This document shows positions 188 to 34,012 of a stretch of DNA of 64,000 nt, piece by piece. How positions within the stretch are numbered: the first letter of the stretch is position 1; each line of letters starts with the position of its first letter. The stretch lies in NCBI RefSeq assembly GCF_000276665.1, contig NW_004955423.1:2042371-2106370 (forward strand), read 5' to 3'. The position numbers and the translations under genes were made by a program. Under the pieces are notes generated by a model. The model saw only the letters and a list, made by a program, of their open reading frames with translations. It did no database searches and was not told the DNA's origin. The stretch is from Chinchilla lanigera. Lineage: Eukaryota; Chordata; Mammalia; Rodentia; Chinchillidae.

Positions 188-270
188 GGGCCATTGGTAT
201 AGCTCAGTGGTACAGTGCCTGCCTGGCAAGCTCAAGGTCCTGGGTTCAATTCCTACTGCCAAAAATAAAT
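188..270 (+). mobile_element. ID SINE (tRNA-derived)
   Basis: The copy has tRNA-like A-box (TATAGCTCAGTGG) and B-box (GGGTTCAATTC) motifs and an A-rich tail. A perfect 15-base target-site duplication (AAATACTAGCAATAA) lies at 173-187 and 271-285, so this is a complete, fairly recent insertion. Confidence 0.92.
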
Positions 271-16673: not shown

Positions 16674-16773
16674 NNNNNNNNNNNNNNNNNNNNNNNNNNN
16701 NNNNNNNNNNNNNNNNNNNNNNNNNNNNNNNNNNNNNNNNNNNNNNNNNNNNNNNNNNNNNNNNNNNNNNNNN
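16674..16773. other. Assembly gap (100 N)
   Basis: Exactly 100 N between two AT-rich runs, the usual placeholder for a gap of unknown size. Confidence 0.99.
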
Positions 16774-21177: not shown

Positions 21178-21313
21178 TTTTTTTTTTTTTTAGAAGCGGG
21201 GAGTGTCTCGCTGTGTAGTTCGGGCTGGCCTTGAACTCCCTATGTCAGCCAGACTGGCTTCCAGCTAATGGTGATCCTCCTGCCTTAGCCTCCCCAGTGC
21301 TGGGATTACCTAC
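21178..21313 (-). mobile_element. B1-like SINE truncated at the LTR
   Basis: A reverse B1 with poly(T) start; its head is missing after CTGGGATTAC, exactly where the ERV 5' LTR begins. Its missing head is not found beyond the 3' LTR. Confidence 0.8.
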
Positions 21314-21617
21314 CGTTGCTGGTGGCTGAAGGTGGAAAGTTATTACGCGTGCAGGACGATGCCAGCCCAGGAGGAGCTCCTGGAAGCATGTCAACAAGCG
21401 TTGTAGCTTCTTAACTGACTGCTGCACAGAGAGGCTGAAATTAATCAACCTTTCAACGGTATAAAAGAAACACTACTGTTCTTGGGCAGTTCCCCTTCTT
21501 TGTTCAGGAGAGAGAGGACCTTCTCCTGATCATGGCTTTTTGTCTCTTGTCTATTTTTTCCTCATTCTTGCTGCTGTTCCTTTCCGGGGTACAGCAAGAA
21601 CCCAACAGATGCTTACA
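21314..21617 (+). repeat. 5' LTR of the ERVK-like provirus
   Basis: It matches 28,090-28,365 along its whole length, for example GAGGAGCTCCTGGAAGCATG and TTGTAGCTTCTTAACTGA. A TATA box (TATAAAA) lies at 21,460-21,466. It starts CG where TG is expected, one transition from the 3' copy. The end at TTACA is chosen by alignment with CTACA of the 3' LTR and is uncertain by about 10 bases. Confidence 0.85.
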
Positions 21618-21619
21618 AC

Positions 21620-21637
21620 TGGTGACCATGAAGGGAA
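21620..21637 (+). promoter_or_regulatory. Candidate primer binding site
   Basis: TGGTGACCATGAAGGGAA begins two bases after the proposed LTR end. TGG at the start is universal for these sites. The first eight bases (TGGTGACC) resemble a tRNA-Trp-type site more than the lysine type common in betaretroviruses, but decay makes the assignment weak. Confidence 0.35.
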
Positions 21638-22255
21638 ACCCAGTAGGAATAAGTGGGTGATAAGAACACATCTAAAGAGCATGCAACAGAAGGGGGAAAG
21701 CACACTTGTGAGAGCTAGTAGCACTGCAGTGCGTCGTGCTGGCATGTCAGGTGTAAAGCATGGGGATGTGGGTTCTCTAGGGCCAGAAAATGTATAGGCT
21801 TCAAAGAAGCCAAAAGAGAAAGGGATATTGAAGTGCAAGTAGAGTCTCAGTACTGCTGGGGGTATATGTATGTAGAAGTGTTTGTTGCATGTTTGACTCC
21901 TATATTTAATATCTGGATGTTGGTTTGAAGGAGTTTTGTAACCATAAAAGATTTGGCTCAGAATGTTATGTTAAGATCAAGTCCCGAGCCTGAGCAGGAC
22001 ATGGAGGACAGAGAAATGGTGCTGCTGGCAGAGCTTGCGTCCTCTATCCTGGTCCAATTTAAAAAGGAAAGAGAAGCACCTGCCTGGCAAGCACAAGGTC
22101 CTGAGTTTGAGTTCCAGTACCAAAAAAAAAAAAAAAAAAGGAAAGAGTGGTGGGAGACAAGAGTGACTTTTTTCCACCAGAGAGGTGTTTCCTTATGAAC
22201 TGTGTCTCACAACAGCTGATGAGTTTGACTGAGCCACAGGCAGCTATTCTGGCAT
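21638..22255. other. ERV leader and gag 5' part, degenerate
   Basis: No continuous gag frame can be followed here. It holds a 5'-truncated ID insertion. Short open frames on both strands have no domain. Confidence 0.4.
22076..22138 (+). mobile_element. 5'-truncated ID SINE inside the ERV
   Basis: CACCTGCCTGGCAAGCACAA followed by a decayed B box and poly(A), with AAAAAGGAAAGAG on both sides. It inserted after the provirus formed. Confidence 0.85.
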
Positions 22256-23365
22256 TTTTAGCTAGGGGAAATTTGGCCGTGACACAGGTGTCTTCCACCT
22301 CCCAGGGAGTAGAGCCATTTTCTCTGTCTTGCTTGCAATTGGCATTAAAAGAAGCTAGAGGGGCAGGAGAGATCATGGAGGGTTTTCAGCATATCTAACC
22401 TGTATCTGAAGTTCAAGTCCCTGAAAGTCTGGGACAAGTTATATGTCATTATGAAGATATACCTTTTAAAACCCTAAAAGAGCTAAAACAAGCTGTTGCT
22501 ACTTAATGGCCCTACTGCTCCCTGTACTTTGAGTTTAGTAGAAATTCTAGGACAACAAATTGTGGCCCCAAATGATTAGAAAGCAATAGCTAAAGCATGT
22601 TTAAATCCAGGTGACTACTTGCTGCGAAAAGGAAGATTTTTTGTATATTGCACAGACCAGGCAATTTGTGATGCTGTTTACTGCATAGCTATTACAAAGG
22701 AGATGCTAGTCTGGGAAGGTGCCTTTGCTATCACAAATAATCAACTGACCTTTGAATTGCCAGCATATGAGCAAACCAAGACGGCTGCCATGAGGGCTTG
22801 GAGGGAACTTCTTTCCAAAGAGGAGGCATCTCTTAATTTGGCTTCTATTTATCAGGGCCCTGATGAGCCTTTTCAAGATTTTGCCACATGCTTATTGCAG
22901 GCTAGTGAGAGGATCATAGACAACACAGAAACTAGCAAACTAATAGTTCAACAGCTGGCTTTTGAAACTGCAAATAAATGGTGTAAAGAGGCCTTAAGAG
23001 CCCACAAAGAATGGGCTATGTTGCCAGAGATGATTTGGCTGTGTGCAGATATTGGCCCCTCATATGTACAGGGAGGGGGCTGCCTTGGTGACAGCTGTTA
23101 CTCAGGTTATTCGTGCGCACGCTGGAAGAAGGGGAAAAAACAAGGCTGTTTGTTTTCATTCCAGGGACAAGGGGCATTTTGTTTGGAACTACCTTGCTGC
23201 ACCAGTAAAGGCAGCTCAGCCAGTCTCTTCAGCTAAACCTTGCAGTCCTTGTACTGTGTCAGCGTGGGTGTCGCTGGAAATGAGTATAGATCTAGAACTG
23301 ATGGGAAAGGTTGGCCCTTCCTGGGAAACTCCCATTGGAGCTTGCCTTGGCCCCACCAAATAATG
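22256..23365 (+). pseudogene. Betaretrovirus-like gag (capsid to nucleocapsid), broken
   Basis: The capsid reading includes an early FKTLKELKQAV motif (about 22,465) and, in the 205-codon stretch opening at 22,619, the major homology region IYQGPDEPFQDF typical of Gag. A frameshift near 23,075 moves the frame. The first zinc knuckle is damaged: Cys-X-His-Ser replaces Cys-X2-Cys and the last Cys is Tyr (about 23,140-23,190). A second frame change follows, and the last part resembles the region behind the second knuckle. A stop replaces a Tyr/Thr-rich site near 22,503. The copy is non-functional. Known role of the family: Gag builds the particle and packages RNA. Confidence 0.85.
22353..22396 (+). 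repeat. 44-base gag segment repeated at 23,556-23,599
   Basis: From AGCTAGAGGGG to CAGCATATCT the two copies differ at one base (C/T). This is the original, in its natural place in gag just before the capsid N-terminus; the other copy sits inside the ZAR1 segment. Confidence 0.93.
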
Positions 23366-23557
23366 GGGGCCCCGATGGCTGCAGTGGGGGACGAGGTGCT
23401 GGGTACATTCAGGTATCTGGTGTGTGCCCTCTACTCCTATCTCTTCCCCTACCTGCCCGACACCAAGGCTGATGCGCTCATGGCTGGTGGCTCCACAGCG
23501 GGGGACACCCTCCTGCCTCGTTCTCCTCCACCATGCTTCTGTTGCATGCTAGCCTAG
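23240..23557 (+). pseudogene. In-frame gag-ZAR1 fusion reading frame
   Basis: A 105-codon open stretch starts in the decayed second zinc-knuckle region of gag and passes without a stop into ZAR1 at 23,369 (gag-like GNSHWSLPWPHQI, then MAAVGDEVLG). It ends at TAG 23,555-23,557. The ZAR1 start codon is kept and its frame equals that of gag. This is the arrangement expected when a retrovirus captures a cellular gene as a Gag fusion. Upstream frameshifts in gag mean it cannot be read from the gag start today. Confidence 0.72.
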
Positions 23558-24332
23558 CTAGAGGGGTAGGAGAGATCATGGAGGGTTTTCAGCATATCTG
23601 TGAGGCTGTGCCCCCGCAGGCCCAGCTGCCATGCTGTGGGGGTGCAGGTGAAACTGTGGTGTGACGCCTTGGTGCAGTGAGTGCCCGGGCAGCAGATGCC
23701 ACCGTGCAGGGCCCGAGACCTAGGAACCTGTGCCTGCCTGCATGCTTCCTGTGCTCACCTGTACACTCACTGCCTCATTGGCTGCCTGGAGGAGGCCCCA
23801 GCAAGCACACAGGGCCCTGCTGTGCTACAGGAGGGTGAGGGGGCAGTGAGGCATCCTCACCACCAAAAGCTGGGCAGGAACAGCAGGAGGCTTGAATAAG
23901 TGAGGTGGCCCCACAGCCTGCACTGCAGAGGGGAAGTGGCCCCTGGCGGTGGAGAGGGGTGGGGACAGTGGGGATACAACCATCACCATTCAGGAGAGGT
24001 TGCCACCAGGTGCCTAGCCAAGCAAGGAGCGCCTGTGCTTCCCGCAAAAATATGGCAATTATCATCACTGCAAGGACTGCAACATCCTCTGGGAGAATGC
24101 GTATGTGTGGTGTGTACAGGGCATGAACAAGGTTTACTTCAAACAGTTTTGCAGAACGTGTTGGAAATCTTACAACCCTTACCAAATGAAGGCTATCACC
24201 TGTTAAAGTTGTAAAAGAACTAGATGAAGAACTAGATGTTTCTGCCCAGTAAGACTTTGCTACAGGGGCCCCAGGTGCTCACATCGTCAAGACCTGTGTG
24301 AGAGAAGCAAAGGTAAGTGCCTGTCCTGTGAT
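23369..24332 (+). pseudogene. ZAR1: ZAR1 retrocopy captured in the provirus
   Basis: The N-terminal part (23,369-23,557) reads MAAVGDEVLG then CALYSYLFPYLP and TKA, as in ZAR1. After a 44-base gag patch, a block with VQVK...DALVQ (about 23,645-23,685) matches the conserved centre. At 24,045-24,332 the C-terminal zinc-binding domain is unmistakable: CKDCNILWENAYVWCVQG, NKVYFKQFCRTC, KSYNPY, CKRTR and HRQDLCERSKGKCLSCD. The cysteines of the CXXC pairs are largely kept. Introns are absent, so it derives from mRNA. Defects: loss of residues between the N-terminal and central parts, a stop at TAA 24,194-24,196, a short duplication around CKRTR with a further stop, and loss of the last residues after LSCD. 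Human and mouse ZAR1 act in oocytes and in the oocyte-to-embryo transition. Confidence 0.88.
23556..23599 (+). repeat. gag-derived patch inside ZAR1
   Basis: A second copy of the 44-base gag segment (22,353-22,396) lies at the point where ZAR1 coding sequence is missing. It joins two ZAR1 pieces and so records a double template jump or an internal recombination. Confidence 0.9.
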
Positions 24333-25235
24333 GGTGCTAGTACTTGGGATCTGAGCAGGAACAAAATACCCAGTAGCCAGAGTGGGAAAAATGACAAGCT
24401 CGCCCAGATCTGAGGTGATAAAATGAAAGCTGCAGCCAGTCACCGCCAGAGCCATTAGTATCAGCACCATTCCGTCCAAGGTGGTGCCTGGAGCTGTTGC
24501 TACTTCCACAGCCAGGCTCCCTTGCCTCACTGCTCATGGCCATGCCCATTCCCCTGTCCACAGCACCCTTCCTCCAGCTTGTAGCCACTCTTGTCTAGGT
24601 GCTGCAGGATGCACAGGGGTGCCAGATAGAATGGGGGACAAAGAGGCCAAGGCCCATAGCAGGGATGGAGGAGGCCACTCAGGGAGTAGCTGGCAAAAGA
24701 CTAAAAGCTAGATGTGCACAGAGAGGATGGCAAGGATGAGGATAAGCTGTGGGGACAGGCAGGGAACCTTGGTCAAGAAGCAAAGGAGATGGTTGTGGAT
24801 GCTGGCAAGGTAGCACAGGACTGGGACGTGAGGAGCTCCAGGCACCCAGGGGACCTGCCACTGGTGGCTAGCCAGTGCCTGGTCCCTGCAGAGGAAGGAC
24901 AGGGCCACCAAACACTGGCCTAGCTGTGCCAGTGCCACACTAGCTGGTGCTGTACAGCACTGCATGTGGCAAGGGTGGCAGCAGGGCCAGGAGTGCCATA
25001 TAGGGGTTGAGTGGCTAGTGACTGAGGCCCAGGTGACCTAGAAGCTGGTAGGACCTGGCAGTGGTGGCGGGAGCAGGGATCAAGGGCTGGGCCCCTCAGG
25101 ACCTTGGTGGCAGGCATCTCTGAGGCAGAGGGGATGCTCATGGTCACCCTGCTGTAGGCTGTGCAGGGCCTGTTCCCTGAGCTGCACCACTTCCTGCAAG
25201 ACTTCACGCCCCAGGTGCTGCACCAGACAATAAAG
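24333..25235. other. GC-rich insert of unknown origin within the provirus
   Basis: About 0.9 kb of GC-rich sequence starts where ZAR1 similarity ends and stops where PIGK similarity starts. Several overlapping open frames of 60-109 codons exist on both strands, with none recognisable. Towards the right end a plus-strand reading includes AVQGLFPELHHFLQDF, which looks protein-like. It may be a third captured transcript. The AATAAA at 25,229-25,234 lies at the PIGK junction and is not followed by poly(A). Confidence 0.5.
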
Positions 25236-25830
25236 CAATGAACTACCACTTAGTATTGACACTTGCCAAGGAGTGTCTACGTGTGAGTGGTTTTATTCTA
25301 ACATAATGGCTCTAGCCAGTAGCTAAGTGGGAGAATTCCCTCTTCCACCAACCTGATCCTGCAATTAGAGTCCTCTCATGGATATATACACATGTCTTGG
25401 AGTTTTCAGAGGTAATTAATCCAGCTAGCTAAACTAACATGAATGACCTTTTTCAAGAATGTTTGAAGAGTCTCTGTATGTCTACTCCTAGACATTGCAC
25501 GGATTCTTTTAAGAGGGATCCTAAAAATGTCCTGATAATTAATTTCTTTGAAAGTATATGGAAAATGTAAATTCTGACGAAGATTATTAGTTTGTGGCAG
25601 GATGCAGAAATCATGGAAAGCAGCTACATTATCTTGATGCTTGCCAATGATATGGCCTGCAATCCTAGAAATCACAAACCAGCTACCATATTTAGTCACA
25701 AATATATGGAACTAAATGTGTATGGAGGTGACATAAAAGAGGATTATAGAAGCTATAAGGTGACCATGAAGGAATATTTTACAGGAATTAACTGGGAGTA
25801 TTCCATTTAGTAATTTTAAGTTAAAACTAA
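25236..25830 (+). pseudogene. PIGK: PIGK retrocopy with permuted order
   Basis: The first part (25,236-25,627) matches the catalytic and C-terminal half of PIGK: IDTCQG (the family's catalytic Cys region), FYSNIMALASS, VLEF, NPAS, TNMNDLFQ, RDPKNVLI and EIMESSY. At 25,628 it continues in the same frame with an earlier part of the protein: IILMLANDMACNPRN, KPATIFSHKYMELNVYG and DYRSYKVT. In the normal protein the second block lies before the first. Weak similarity may extend to about 25,960. Several stops are present, and no introns. PIGK is the cysteine-protease-like subunit of the ER GPI transamidase that attaches GPI anchors; this copy is not functional. Confidence 0.85.
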
Positions 25831-26716
25831 GGCTAAATCTGACATAGGGCTAACCAAAAAAATTGACCCAGAAGGCCCAGGAAATAGTAATGAAAGTGGG
25901 AATTAAAGAGTTGAACAAGTGATAGAGTATATAGAGATAATTGGGCTGAAAGTTACCAGTATTCTTAAGACAGAATAAAATACAAAGAATATATATATAC
26001 ATATATATATGTGTGTATATACATATGATTATATTCCTTCCAAACTTTTCTGATAAGAAATCTCTGATAATTAATGAACAACAAAATCTGACTAGTCTAT
26101 TTATAATTATAAATTTCTAAAAACTAAGAGTTACATAATTTCAATTTGATCTAGAATATCTTTGAGTGCATTCTGATTTTGTAAGATATTTTTGTGTTCT
26201 GTGTACTTGTGACATGTTTGTCATTCTGTGAGCAGCTGTTCACCTTTATTTTGAGCTCAACTGTTTTTCTTTGATCACTTGTTTATACTTTGGATTATAG
26301 ACTTGAAAGTATGCTTTCTCCCGAGCTACCGGCTGGTTTAAATAATATCAAAATTGGCTTTCTTGCAGCTCATCAAAAAATTAAAATCTTTAACCATAAT
26401 CCCTTAGGGTGAGGAGAAATTATTGGGCAGGATTCCAGGTGGTGAATAGAGTAGTGGCCAACCTTTGTTCATTAAGAACAAAGATCTCCCAATGATCTCC
26501 AGAGTCTCTTGGGAGACATACCCAATAATTTGGTCATGGTCAAAAGTGTTCCAGAAAAAAATAAAATATGAGGTTTTGTCACAAAAGATGCTCTTGGTAC
26601 AAAACTAAATTAAGAAACAAAGATTTTCACATGGTAATTAATTATTGTTAATCTCATGGTGTATTAAATGTATTCATGATTCTGGGTGTACATGTCTTCA
26701 AAATGTAAAGCAAGGA

Positions 26717-26885
26717 GCCAGGCATGGTGGTGCACACCTGTAATCCCAGCACTTGGGAGGCTGAGGCAGGAGGATCATTTTGAGTTCAAGACCAGCCTGG
26801 GCTACAAAGTGAGCTCAAGGCCAGCCTCAACTTCATAATGAGACCCTGTCTCAAAAAAACCCCCAAAAAACAAAAAAACAAAAAC
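26717..26885 (+). mobile_element. B1-like SINE inside the provirus
   Basis: A near-intact B1-like copy with a perfect 17-base target-site duplication (AAAATGTAAAGCAAGGA) at 26,700-26,716 and 26,886-26,902. It inserted after the provirus. Confidence 0.95.
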
Positions 26886-28077
26886 AAAATGTAAAGCAAG
26901 GATTGCTTATGATAAAACTTTTCATTCTGATTCAGGCCTCTGCCTTAACAAAAACTTATGTAGTTGTTAAAGGATAACAGGTAGATAAAAGCTTCTTATG
27001 TATTGGATAGGGATGACTGGTTAAAAGGGTTATGTTATGTCAAAATGAAAATTTAAGTATGTTACAAAATGTCATGATTGTCATGTGCCAAGGTTACGTG
27101 ATGATTTGTTTTCTAACTTTAATGTAAAGACATGTAACCATTATCTGTTGAAAACCTGTAGGGACCTAAATGATAGGATATCCATGGTTGTTAGACAATA
27201 ACAGTCCTATTTTATGTTCTAAGATGTTTGATACTCAGATAGATAGTAATGTTAAACTTACTACCTCTATTATTTCAGATCAATAGTAATGTTAGGCTTG
27301 CTGTCTCTAGCACAGTGTAATGTCATTGAGCTTCTCTTCTGGATATTTAGCAACTGAGATTTGGAGACCAAAGAAGTAGATAAATACCAAAGTAGATAAA
27401 ATACTGGCTTAAGAGGATAGCCAGTATTTTGGCTGTAGCCCTCTGAGGTCAGAGTAAACCCAGGACAGAAGAGAACTTCTGCTACGACATCCTGTAACTC
27501 AGTTGAATCCCTGGTTTTCTGATCAAGGAGATTATGGGACCACAGAGGAAAGTGATTTGACAGTGTATAGTGTGCCTAAGGAGAGTCACTTGGAGAGATA
27601 AGGTCTCTCAAGCTTTTGTAGAAAGCAACTTGGTCAAGCAATGCCTATGACTCATCCAGATGGCTGACACTGACAGTGGATTTAAAAGGTGCTGTGTGTG
27701 GTTCCAAGGTAATCCTGAGGAGAGTTAAGTGATCTTGATAGTGAACAGTGGTTAACATGGATCTTGACTTACCTTGGTCTTAAACATCCAGCAGAAATGC
27801 TTCTTAAACATCAGACTCCCACAGAGATCTGGCCGGCCACAGAGCAGCTGGAGCCTAGGTCCCATGAATCAATTCCTTGTGCCCCTATGAGAAGAACGGC
27901 TTGTGATGTGCAAGATGCATTGCCACAGTAAGATGCTAGCTGTAAAGGGTTCAAATCACCAATAATTTGGGACAGTTGCCAGCTAGACTAGTAACTGACT
28001 ACTGTTATGGATATTTGGAATGTATTCTCCAAGCATAGCTTTTCCAGCTTCAGCTAAACACTCATCATTTACAAAAT

Positions 28078-28087
28078 AGAGGAGAAA
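28078..28087 (+). promoter_or_regulatory. Candidate polypurine tract
   Basis: AGAGGAGAAA lies two bases upstream of the 3' LTR start (TG at 28,090), where plus-strand priming occurs in retroviruses. Confidence 0.55.
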
Positions 28088-28089
28088 TA

Positions 28090-28365
28090 TGTTGGGAGTG
28101 GCTGAAGCTGGAAAGTAATTACACATGCAGGATGAAGCCAGCCAAGAGGAGCTCCTGGAAGCATGTAACAAGCCATTGTAGCTTCTTAACTGATTGCTGG
28201 GCAGAGAGGCTGAAATTAATCAACTTCTACTGTTCTTGGGCAGTTTTCCTTCTTTGTTCAAGAGAGAAAGGACCTCTTCCTGACCACAGCTTTTTGTCTG
28301 TTGTCTATTTTTCCTCATTCCCACCGCCGTTCCTTCCCAGGTTATAGCAAGAACCCAAATCTACA
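28090..28365 (+). repeat. 3' LTR of the ERVK-like provirus
   Basis: Starts TGTTGGGAGTGGCTGAAGC and matches the 5' LTR throughout. It lacks about 20 bases that in the 5' LTR carry the TATA box (gap after TTAATCAACT). It ends near CTACA. Confidence 0.85.
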
Positions 28366-33720: not shown

Positions 33721-34012
33721 NNNNNNNNNNNNNNNNNNNNNNNNNNNNNNNNNNNNNNNNNNNNNNNNNNNNNNNNNNNNNNNNNNNNNNNNNNNNNNNN
33801 NNNNNNNNNNNNNNNNNNNNNNNNNNNNNNNNNNNNNNNNNNNNNNNNNNNNNNNNNNNNNNNNNNNNNNNNNNNNNNNNNNNNNNNNNNNNNNNNNNNN
33901 NNNNNNNNNNNNNNNNNNNNNNNNNNNNNNNNNNNNNNNNNNNNNNNNNNNNNNNNNNNNNNNNNNNNNNNNNNNNNNNNNNNNNNNNNNNNNNNNNNNN
34001 NNNNNNNNNNNN
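33721..34012. other. Assembly gap (292 N)
   Basis: 292 unresolved bases directly after an ID SINE tail; open frames drawn across it are meaningless. Confidence 0.99.

What the first reader, a model, noticed from the sequence alone, without database searches (positions are those of the whole stretch)
21314..28365. Ancient ERVK-like provirus that carries captured cellular transcripts instead of pol/env
Seen: two matching LTRs, a gag with a clear major homology region, then intron-less ZAR1, an unidentified GC-rich block and PIGK, all between the LTRs, with no pol or env. Known: acute transforming retroviruses and some non-autonomous elements carry captured host cDNA. Inference: this was a non-autonomous, multi-capture retroviral element of a rodent germline. 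An oocyte transcript (ZAR1) would be well placed for packaging in the germline.
Basis: partly seen in the sequence, partly recalled or inferred. Interest (0 to 1): 0.92.

Follow-up and report, generated by a model that had tools for sequence, protein, structure and literature searches.

The report
Retrovirus that swallowed a circular RNA
An old rodent retrovirus family picked up pieces of three host gene transcripts, one of them apparently a complete turn of a circular RNA, and then copied the chimera to dozens of places in the genome.

Summary
Window 21314-28359 is a provirus with paired LTRs and a betaretrovirus-like Gag, followed by host sequence. Searching the host genome settled the main question: at least 57 places hold two or three of these sequences close together, and copies share the junctions, so the chimera was mobilised as a unit. 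PIGK is the surprise. It reads exons 7-8-9 then 4-5(-6); 35 of 35 non-parental places with both halves have this order. The join falls exactly at the exon 9 donor and the deduced exon 4 start, and in longer copies the piece begins and ends within a few codons of the same point: one turn of a circular RNA of exons 4-9. A copy without TUT1 or ZAR1 carries this lap between protease and integrase, and TUT1 came after PIGK. ZAR1 joins Gag in frame in 14 of 21 loci; evidence of selection on it is only suggestive. Retroviral capture and circRNA-derived pseudogenes with LTR flanks are known; one closed lap plus two further captures in a multicopy family is a new variant.

The parts
21309..21313 (.). 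possible 5' target-site duplication (CCTAC), at the end of a B1-type SINE
21314..21607 (+). 5' LTR
   Evidence: 40 scored LTR matches in own genome
21608..22618 (+). leader and matrix part of gag; SINE tail at 22074-22139
   Evidence: leader and part of matrix shared with L005, L008, L048, L050
22619..23236 (+). gag capsid, betaretrovirus-like
23237..23356 (+). end of gag nucleocapsid; its last part is in the frame of ZAR1, but in this copy a frameshift lies within the nucleocapsid
23357..24345 (+). captured ZAR1, residues 1-352 of Cavia numbering (residues about 52-80 missing in the matches listed for other copies)
24349..24439 (+). retroviral remnant between ZAR1 and TUT1; 24349-24387 and 24402-24439 also present in PIGK-only relatives
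   Evidence: L048, L050
24440..25244 (+). captured TUT1 C-terminal part, up to and including the stop codon (TGA at 25239-25241)
   Evidence: parental last exon L024
25236..25623 (+). PIGK exons 7-8-9 (residues 196-331); shares CAATGARCT with the end of TUT1
25624..25828 (+). PIGK exon 4 and part of exon 5 (residues 80 to about 148), placed after exon 9; the rest of exons 5-6, kept in other copies, is missing here
25829..28089 (+). 3' internal region of the provirus, no recognised gene; its first part matches sequence after the integrase region in L049, L051
26719..26860 (+). later B1-type SINE insertion with 17-base duplication aaaatgtaaagcaagga
28090..28359 (+). 3' LTR
28360..28364 (.). possible 3' target-site duplication (TCTAC)

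Best explanation
This is one copy of an old, helper-dependent betaretrovirus-like (ERVK-type) family of a hystricomorph rodent that gained host transcripts step by step, by template switching during reverse transcription. Step 1: in an element that still had protease and integrase, reverse transcriptase jumped onto a circular RNA of PIGK exons 4-9, copied it for one turn and jumped back, leaving one permuted lap between protease and integrase. Step 2: TUT1 mRNA was joined at an 8-9-base match between the end of its coding sequence and PIGK exon 7, taking the place of the protease stretch. Separately, ZAR1 mRNA was joined to the end of gag, in frame. The chimera then spread. Shown: shared junctions, the exon 9/exon 4 join at splice boundaries, lap closure, and PIGK before TUT1. 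Inferred: the circular state of the PIGK template, template switching as the mechanism, the need for a helper, and loss of the template to RNase H as the reason for exactly one lap.
For: Copies: TUT1 query 42 matches at 40 scored places of 100 candidates; of 127 places clustered hold all three genes, 22 PIGK+ZAR1, 7 TUT1+ZAR1, 4 PIGK+TUT1. Junctions shared between copies. L024 is the separate parental TUT1, open last exon, no ZAR1 or PIGK within 1.5 kb. PIGK order: 35 of 35 non-parental places with both halves are permuted, none in gene order. Exact join: parental exon 9 ends GGCAG|GTATTC; exon 3 ends CCTGACAG|GTAAGA, so exon 4 must begin with the last base of codon 80; exon 10 begins TTACAAGG. 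Of 15 other loci 9 read AG|CCAC at the join, the rest carry substitutions or damage, and none reads the exon 10 start. Lap closure: 9 of 11 segments tested continue through exon 5 into exon 6, eight of them to residues 187-192; L044 and L047 run from residue 192/193 to 330, then 80 to 192 and 189. Three matches ran past residue 331; all three were fetched and show exon 4 sequence at the join, so the overrun is alignment noise. C39 keeps protease (1.3e-5) upstream and integrase (1e-7) downstream of the lap. TUT1-bearing copies lack the first codons of the lap, kept in L044/L047, so TUT1 came after PIGK. Source: four ERV ZAR1 rows and three hystricomorphs are split from four other species at 100/99.
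Against: No RNA data: a PIGK circular RNA in this host was not seen, and 'circPIGK' is in no paper of the library. The exon 4 acceptor was not read: 20 kb after exon 3 (585 N in it) held no exon 4, an exon 4 coding pattern hit 10 places, none in the parental locus, and the 6 fetched were proviral copies, and an acceptor pattern search did not complete. It is deduced from exon 3 and from gene-model proteins. Exons 3 and 9 both end in CAG, so a 3-base microhomology jump at that point is possible. Parental exons 4-8 and parental ZAR1 were not recognised, so exon 7 was read only from copies. At C42 the integrase piece had no Pfam match; its kinship with C39 rests on DNA alignment. The window itself lacks the end of exon 5 and exon 6.
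Confidence: 0.88

Rival explanations
1. Same retroviral family, but the permuted PIGK piece came from jumps between linear PIGK mRNAs rather than from a circular RNA.
For: Retroviral reverse transcriptase does switch between RNAs at short matches (passages of PMC5408686); an 8-9-base match is seen at TUT1/PIGK, and exons 3 and 9 share CAG at their ends.
Against: It needs the inner jump to fall exactly on the exon 9 end and exon 4 start, and the outer ends to meet within a few codons out of about 250. My own rough estimate, from no call, is 1e-3 to 1e-4 for the first and about 2 in 100 for the second. Both hold.
Confidence: 0.08
2. A linear PIGK transcript with duplicated exons 4-9 (genomic duplication or trans-splicing) was captured.
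For: It would also give an exact exon 9/exon 4 join.
Against: One lap that begins and ends at the same point would be a coincidence. In the parental locus on C22 exons 2, 3, 9, 10 and 11 were each seen once (a further damaged exon 10-11 match lies on C79), but exons 4-8 were not read and one search scored 105 of 262 candidates.
Confidence: 0.03
3. Separate L1-made processed pseudogenes landed in an old provirus, or the window is misassembled.
For: PIGK lacks introns here, and old proviruses collect insertions, such as the SINE at 26719. (TUT1 is one exon in this stretch, so its lack of introns says nothing; ZAR1 intron positions are recalled.)
Against: The same junctions recur at many places; I saw by eye no poly(A) tails or duplications at the junctions; no N nearby.
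Confidence: 0.01

Closest known systems
circRNA-derived pseudogenes of mouse (circRFWD2, circSATB1)
   Same: Non-collinear exon order from a back-splice junction, many copies, no poly(A) in 39 of 42 circRFWD2 cases as the review states; LTR sequences reported in the flanks (passages of PMC5345220, and PMC5408686; the original Dong 2016 paper is not held).
   Different: Here the lap is complete, sits inside a recognisable provirus between protease and integrase, and the same family later gained two mRNAs. How complete the mouse laps are I did not see.
Acute transforming retroviruses (Gag-onc; recalled)
   Same: Host mRNA replaces viral genes and is fused in frame to Gag; helper-dependent.
   Different: Germline family, three host genes, no oncogene, no evidence of disease.
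LTR-mediated retroposition and maize Bs1
   Same: Template switching at short similarities; Bs1 carries pieces of three cellular genes (passages of PMC5408686; Tan 2016 not held).
   Different: Mammalian betaretrovirus-like element; one source was apparently circular.
ETn/MusD and VL30 non-autonomous rodent elements (recalled)
   Same: LTR elements whose coding part was replaced and that spread by help in trans.
   Different: Here the replacement is identified as named host transcripts.

Membership tests
ERVK / betaretrovirus-like endogenous retrovirus | paired LTRs with short target duplication | tested here: met
   duplication 5-6 bases with one mismatch
ERVK / betaretrovirus-like endogenous retrovirus | betaretrovirus-like Gag capsid | tested here: met
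   best PDB match 6hwi (M-PMV, recalled), then HERV-K chains
ERVK / betaretrovirus-like endogenous retrovirus | RT phylogeny | not tested
   no RT was identified in the window or in the loci read
Non-autonomous element mobilised with captured host sequence | same host junctions at several places on different contigs | tested here: met
Non-autonomous element mobilised with captured host sequence | lacks its own RT and integrase | tested here: met
   forward frames of the window; not tested for the other chimeric copies
circRNA-derived pseudogene | permuted exon order joined exactly at splice sites | tested here: met
   exon 9 end and exon 3 end read in the parental gene; exon 4 start deduced, not read
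circRNA-derived pseudogene | closed lap with no poly(A) | tested here: met
   poly(A) judged by eye
circRNA-derived pseudogene | the circular RNA exists in the host | not testable with these tools
   no RNA-seq available
L1-made processed pseudogene | own poly(A) tail and target duplication for each host piece | tested here: not met
   read by eye at the junctions
Gag-host fusion (as in acute transforming retroviruses) | in-frame Gag to host coding sequence | tested here: met
   14 of 21 loci with both anchors keep frame, 7 do not, the window among them; L037 has a natural open frame from capsid through nucleocapsid to the start of ZAR1, L033 from the nucleocapsid tail through most of ZAR1 (Pfam 8.8e-7 for the zinc domain)
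Gag-host fusion (as in acute transforming retroviruses) | host part under selection as protein | tested here: inconclusive

The most novel reading that the evidence does not exclude
While it spread, the family made a Gag protein extended by the oocyte RNA-binding protein ZAR1 (and perhaps the TUT1 tail), kept by selection because it helped the element in the female germline; and retroviral reverse transcription captures circular RNAs as exactly one lap, because RNase H destroys the template behind the enzyme.
Probability: 0.3. Interest if true: 0.93.

Novelty: new variant of a known kind. Interest (0 to 1): 0.85.

Why it matters
It gives a multicopy fossil record of a retrovirus gaining host transcripts in succession, and a clear case for a circular RNA as a retroviral template. 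The single closed lap makes a mechanism testable: whether RNase H limits copying of circles to one turn. If the Gag-ZAR1 fusion was functional, it would be a germline counterpart of Gag-oncogene fusions, using an oocyte protein.

Tried and rejected
Exon 6 in the window copy: a codon-aware alignment scored no better than shuffles (178 of 300 as good), so an earlier impression was dropped; exon 6 is present in other copies. A breakpoint inside PIGK exon 10, which the window letters alone allow, was rejected after other copies and parental exon 10 were read. Selection test: variants shared between copies show third-position excess over singletons in gag (OR 1.48, p 0.16), ZAR1 (1.55, p 0.025) and TUT1 (1.60, p 0.029), not in PIGK (0.93 and 0.88); pooled gag, ZAR1 and TUT1 p 0.0003, coding against PIGK p 0.009. 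Against it: a presumed noncoding control (U1) gave OR 2.23, p 0.013 and 1.56, p 0.11, where columns needed 8 instead of 10 copies; other noncoding controls (LTR, leader, U2, U3) had too few sites; 13 of 25 loci share a frame offset inside TUT1 and the ZAR1-to-TUT1 frame is kept in only 10 of 25; related copies are not independent. I count this as suggestive only. Gag search of 5.8 billion proteins: none of 26 candidates passed; IMG/VR: one stretch matched a pattern, none was confirmed. A 3' piece searched as a possible fourth transcript found only a chance-level row, E 0.66, and proved proviral. Pfam did not recognise ZAR1 in the broken window copy, though it did in L033.
Full report
What is in the window. 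Two LTRs, 21314-21607 and 28090-28359, differ at 41 of 271 aligned columns (K2P 0.172). With a neutral rate of 2 to 4.5e-9 per site per year (recalled, not from a call) this is very roughly 19-43 million years. Between them lie a leader, a gag with a good capsid match, a nucleocapsid end, ZAR1, TUT1, PIGK and a 2.2 kb tail without recognised genes. A B1-type SINE with its own 17-base duplication entered later.

The host. The best ZAR1 matches are Cavia, Erethizon and Octodon. A tree of four naturally open ZAR1 frames, chosen from the ten ZAR1 loci L032-L041, with seven species splits the copies and the three hystricomorphs from squirrel, rabbit, gopher and vole with support 100/99. Parental PIGK exon 9 (57 residues) and exon 10 (28 residues) are identical to Chinchilla lanigera protein P0131.

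Mobilisation. The host genome (2.37 Gb, 442 contigs) could be searched. The LTR gave 40 scored matches of 638 candidates. The TUT1 block gave 42 matches at 40 scored places of 100 candidates. I read 19 of those 39 non-window places with 1.5 kb flanks (L010-L028); 18 are proviral copies or fragments and most of these carry gag, ZAR1, TUT1 and PIGK in that order as far as the flanks reach. Thirteen span the gag/ZAR1 junction, 18 the TUT1/PIGK junction and 15 the PIGK exon 9/4 region, of which L019, L026 and L028 are damaged at the join. L024 is the parental TUT1: open last exon with a splice acceptor in front, no ZAR1 or PIGK beside it. Clustering one row per place (40 places; 90; 78 non-parental), start points less than 5 kb apart, gives 127 places: 24 with all three genes, 22 PIGK+ZAR1, 7 TUT1+ZAR1, 4 PIGK+TUT1, 37 ZAR1 only, 28 PIGK only, 5 TUT1 only, one of the last being the parental gene. 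Some ZAR1-only places may be host gene exons. The lists were cut by the tool, so the counts are lower bounds and a place listed with one gene may hold more.

PIGK as one lap of a circle. In the window, residues 196-331 come before residues 80 to about 148. In 35 of 35 non-parental places that hold both halves the order is the same. Parental DNA fixes the boundaries: exon 9 ends GGCAG|GTATTC (L042), exon 3 ends CCTGACAG|GTAAGA (L059), exon 10 begins after CAG with TTACAAGG (L030). Exon 4 must therefore begin with the last base of codon 80 followed by the codons for HIV. Of 15 other loci 9 read AG|CCAC at the join, which is exon 9 joined to that start; the window has one C to T change there, the others carry substitutions or damage. 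Gene-model proteins of other mammals, as I read them, agree with these boundaries. The outer ends meet too: 9 of 11 segments tested continue through exon 5 into exon 6, eight of them to residues 187-192 (L010 less clearly), and L044 and L047 run from residue 192/193 round to 192 and 189. Exons 4-9 are thus present once, opened at the end of exon 6. A circular RNA copied for one turn explains both joins at once. RNase H removing the template behind the enzyme would explain why there is one turn and not more; that step is inference.

Order of events. Two PIGK-only places (C39 and C42) were read further out. They have the same type of LTR and leader (71-76% identity). At C39 a protease fragment lies upstream of PIGK (RVP, 1.3e-5) and integrase downstream (IN_DBD_C, 1e-7; rve core below its cut-off); the C42 piece gave no Pfam match but aligns with C39 at 72-77%. 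The stretches 24349-24387 and 24402-24439 of the window match both places, so these are retroviral, not TUT1 or ZAR1. Parental TUT1 ends AATAAAGCAATGAGCTGC, chimeric copies read AATAAAGCAATGAGCTAC, and PIGK-only copies read ACAATGAGCTAC (L043) or ATAATGAGCTAC (L047), so the switch lies within eight or nine shared bases. TUT1-bearing copies lack the first codons of the lap that L044 and L047 keep, so TUT1 arrived after PIGK. ZAR1 has retroviral sequence on both sides, so it was a separate capture; its order relative to TUT1 is not settled.

Gag-ZAR1. Of 21 loci with both anchors, 14 keep the nucleocapsid in the frame of ZAR1 and 7 do not, the window among them because of a frameshift within the nucleocapsid. 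This reflects one ancestral in-frame join rather than 14 events. L037 has a natural open frame of 216 codons from capsid through both zinc knuckles to the start of ZAR1; L033 one of 377 codons from the nucleocapsid tail through most of ZAR1, in which Pfam recognises the zinc domain. Codon-position counts point to constraint before insertion, but one noncoding control also showed a signal and the TUT1 frame is often broken. I therefore claim the fusion, not its function.

Literature. Library searches. I read passages of PMC5345220, PMC5408686 and PMC12747553, and otherwise search listings. The passages report circRNA-derived pseudogenes in mouse and human, most circRFWD2 ones without poly(A), LTR flanks in mouse, LTR-mediated retroposition by template switching, and maize Bs1 with three cellular genes. 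In these listings and passages I saw no report of this family or of ZAR1 captured by a retrovirus. The library holds open-licence papers only.

Noticed in passing
window 22353-22396 and 23556-23599: A 44-base stretch of gag matrix recurs, 98% identical, inside ZAR1. In loci whose ZAR1 alignment begins near there it starts at base 43-55 of that piece, so most lack it; it looks like a copy-specific templated insertion.
   Followed up: partly
L033 (G000:C6:28298981), L034, L036 and other ZAR1 hits: Some copies keep long ZAR1 frames without stops despite their age. Within fetched loci I found 377, 330 and 327 codons in L033, L034, L036; the tool's own open-frame column gives larger values, some implausible.
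   Followed up: partly
G000 ZAR1 search: No high-identity parental ZAR1 first exon appeared among the matches listed; the gene may be missing from the assembly, or crowded out by copies.
   Followed up: no
L014, L018, L020-L023: A subgroup has roughly 85-130 more bases than the window between ZAR1 and TUT1, and its alignment to PIGK stops early in exon 5, apparently a second lineage of the chimera.
   Followed up: partly
window 193-264: Rfam tRNA match of 34 bits that ARAGORN does not call; probably a tRNA-derived SINE.
   Followed up: no
window 16674-16773 and 33721-34012: Runs of N, assembly gaps outside the element.
   Followed up: no
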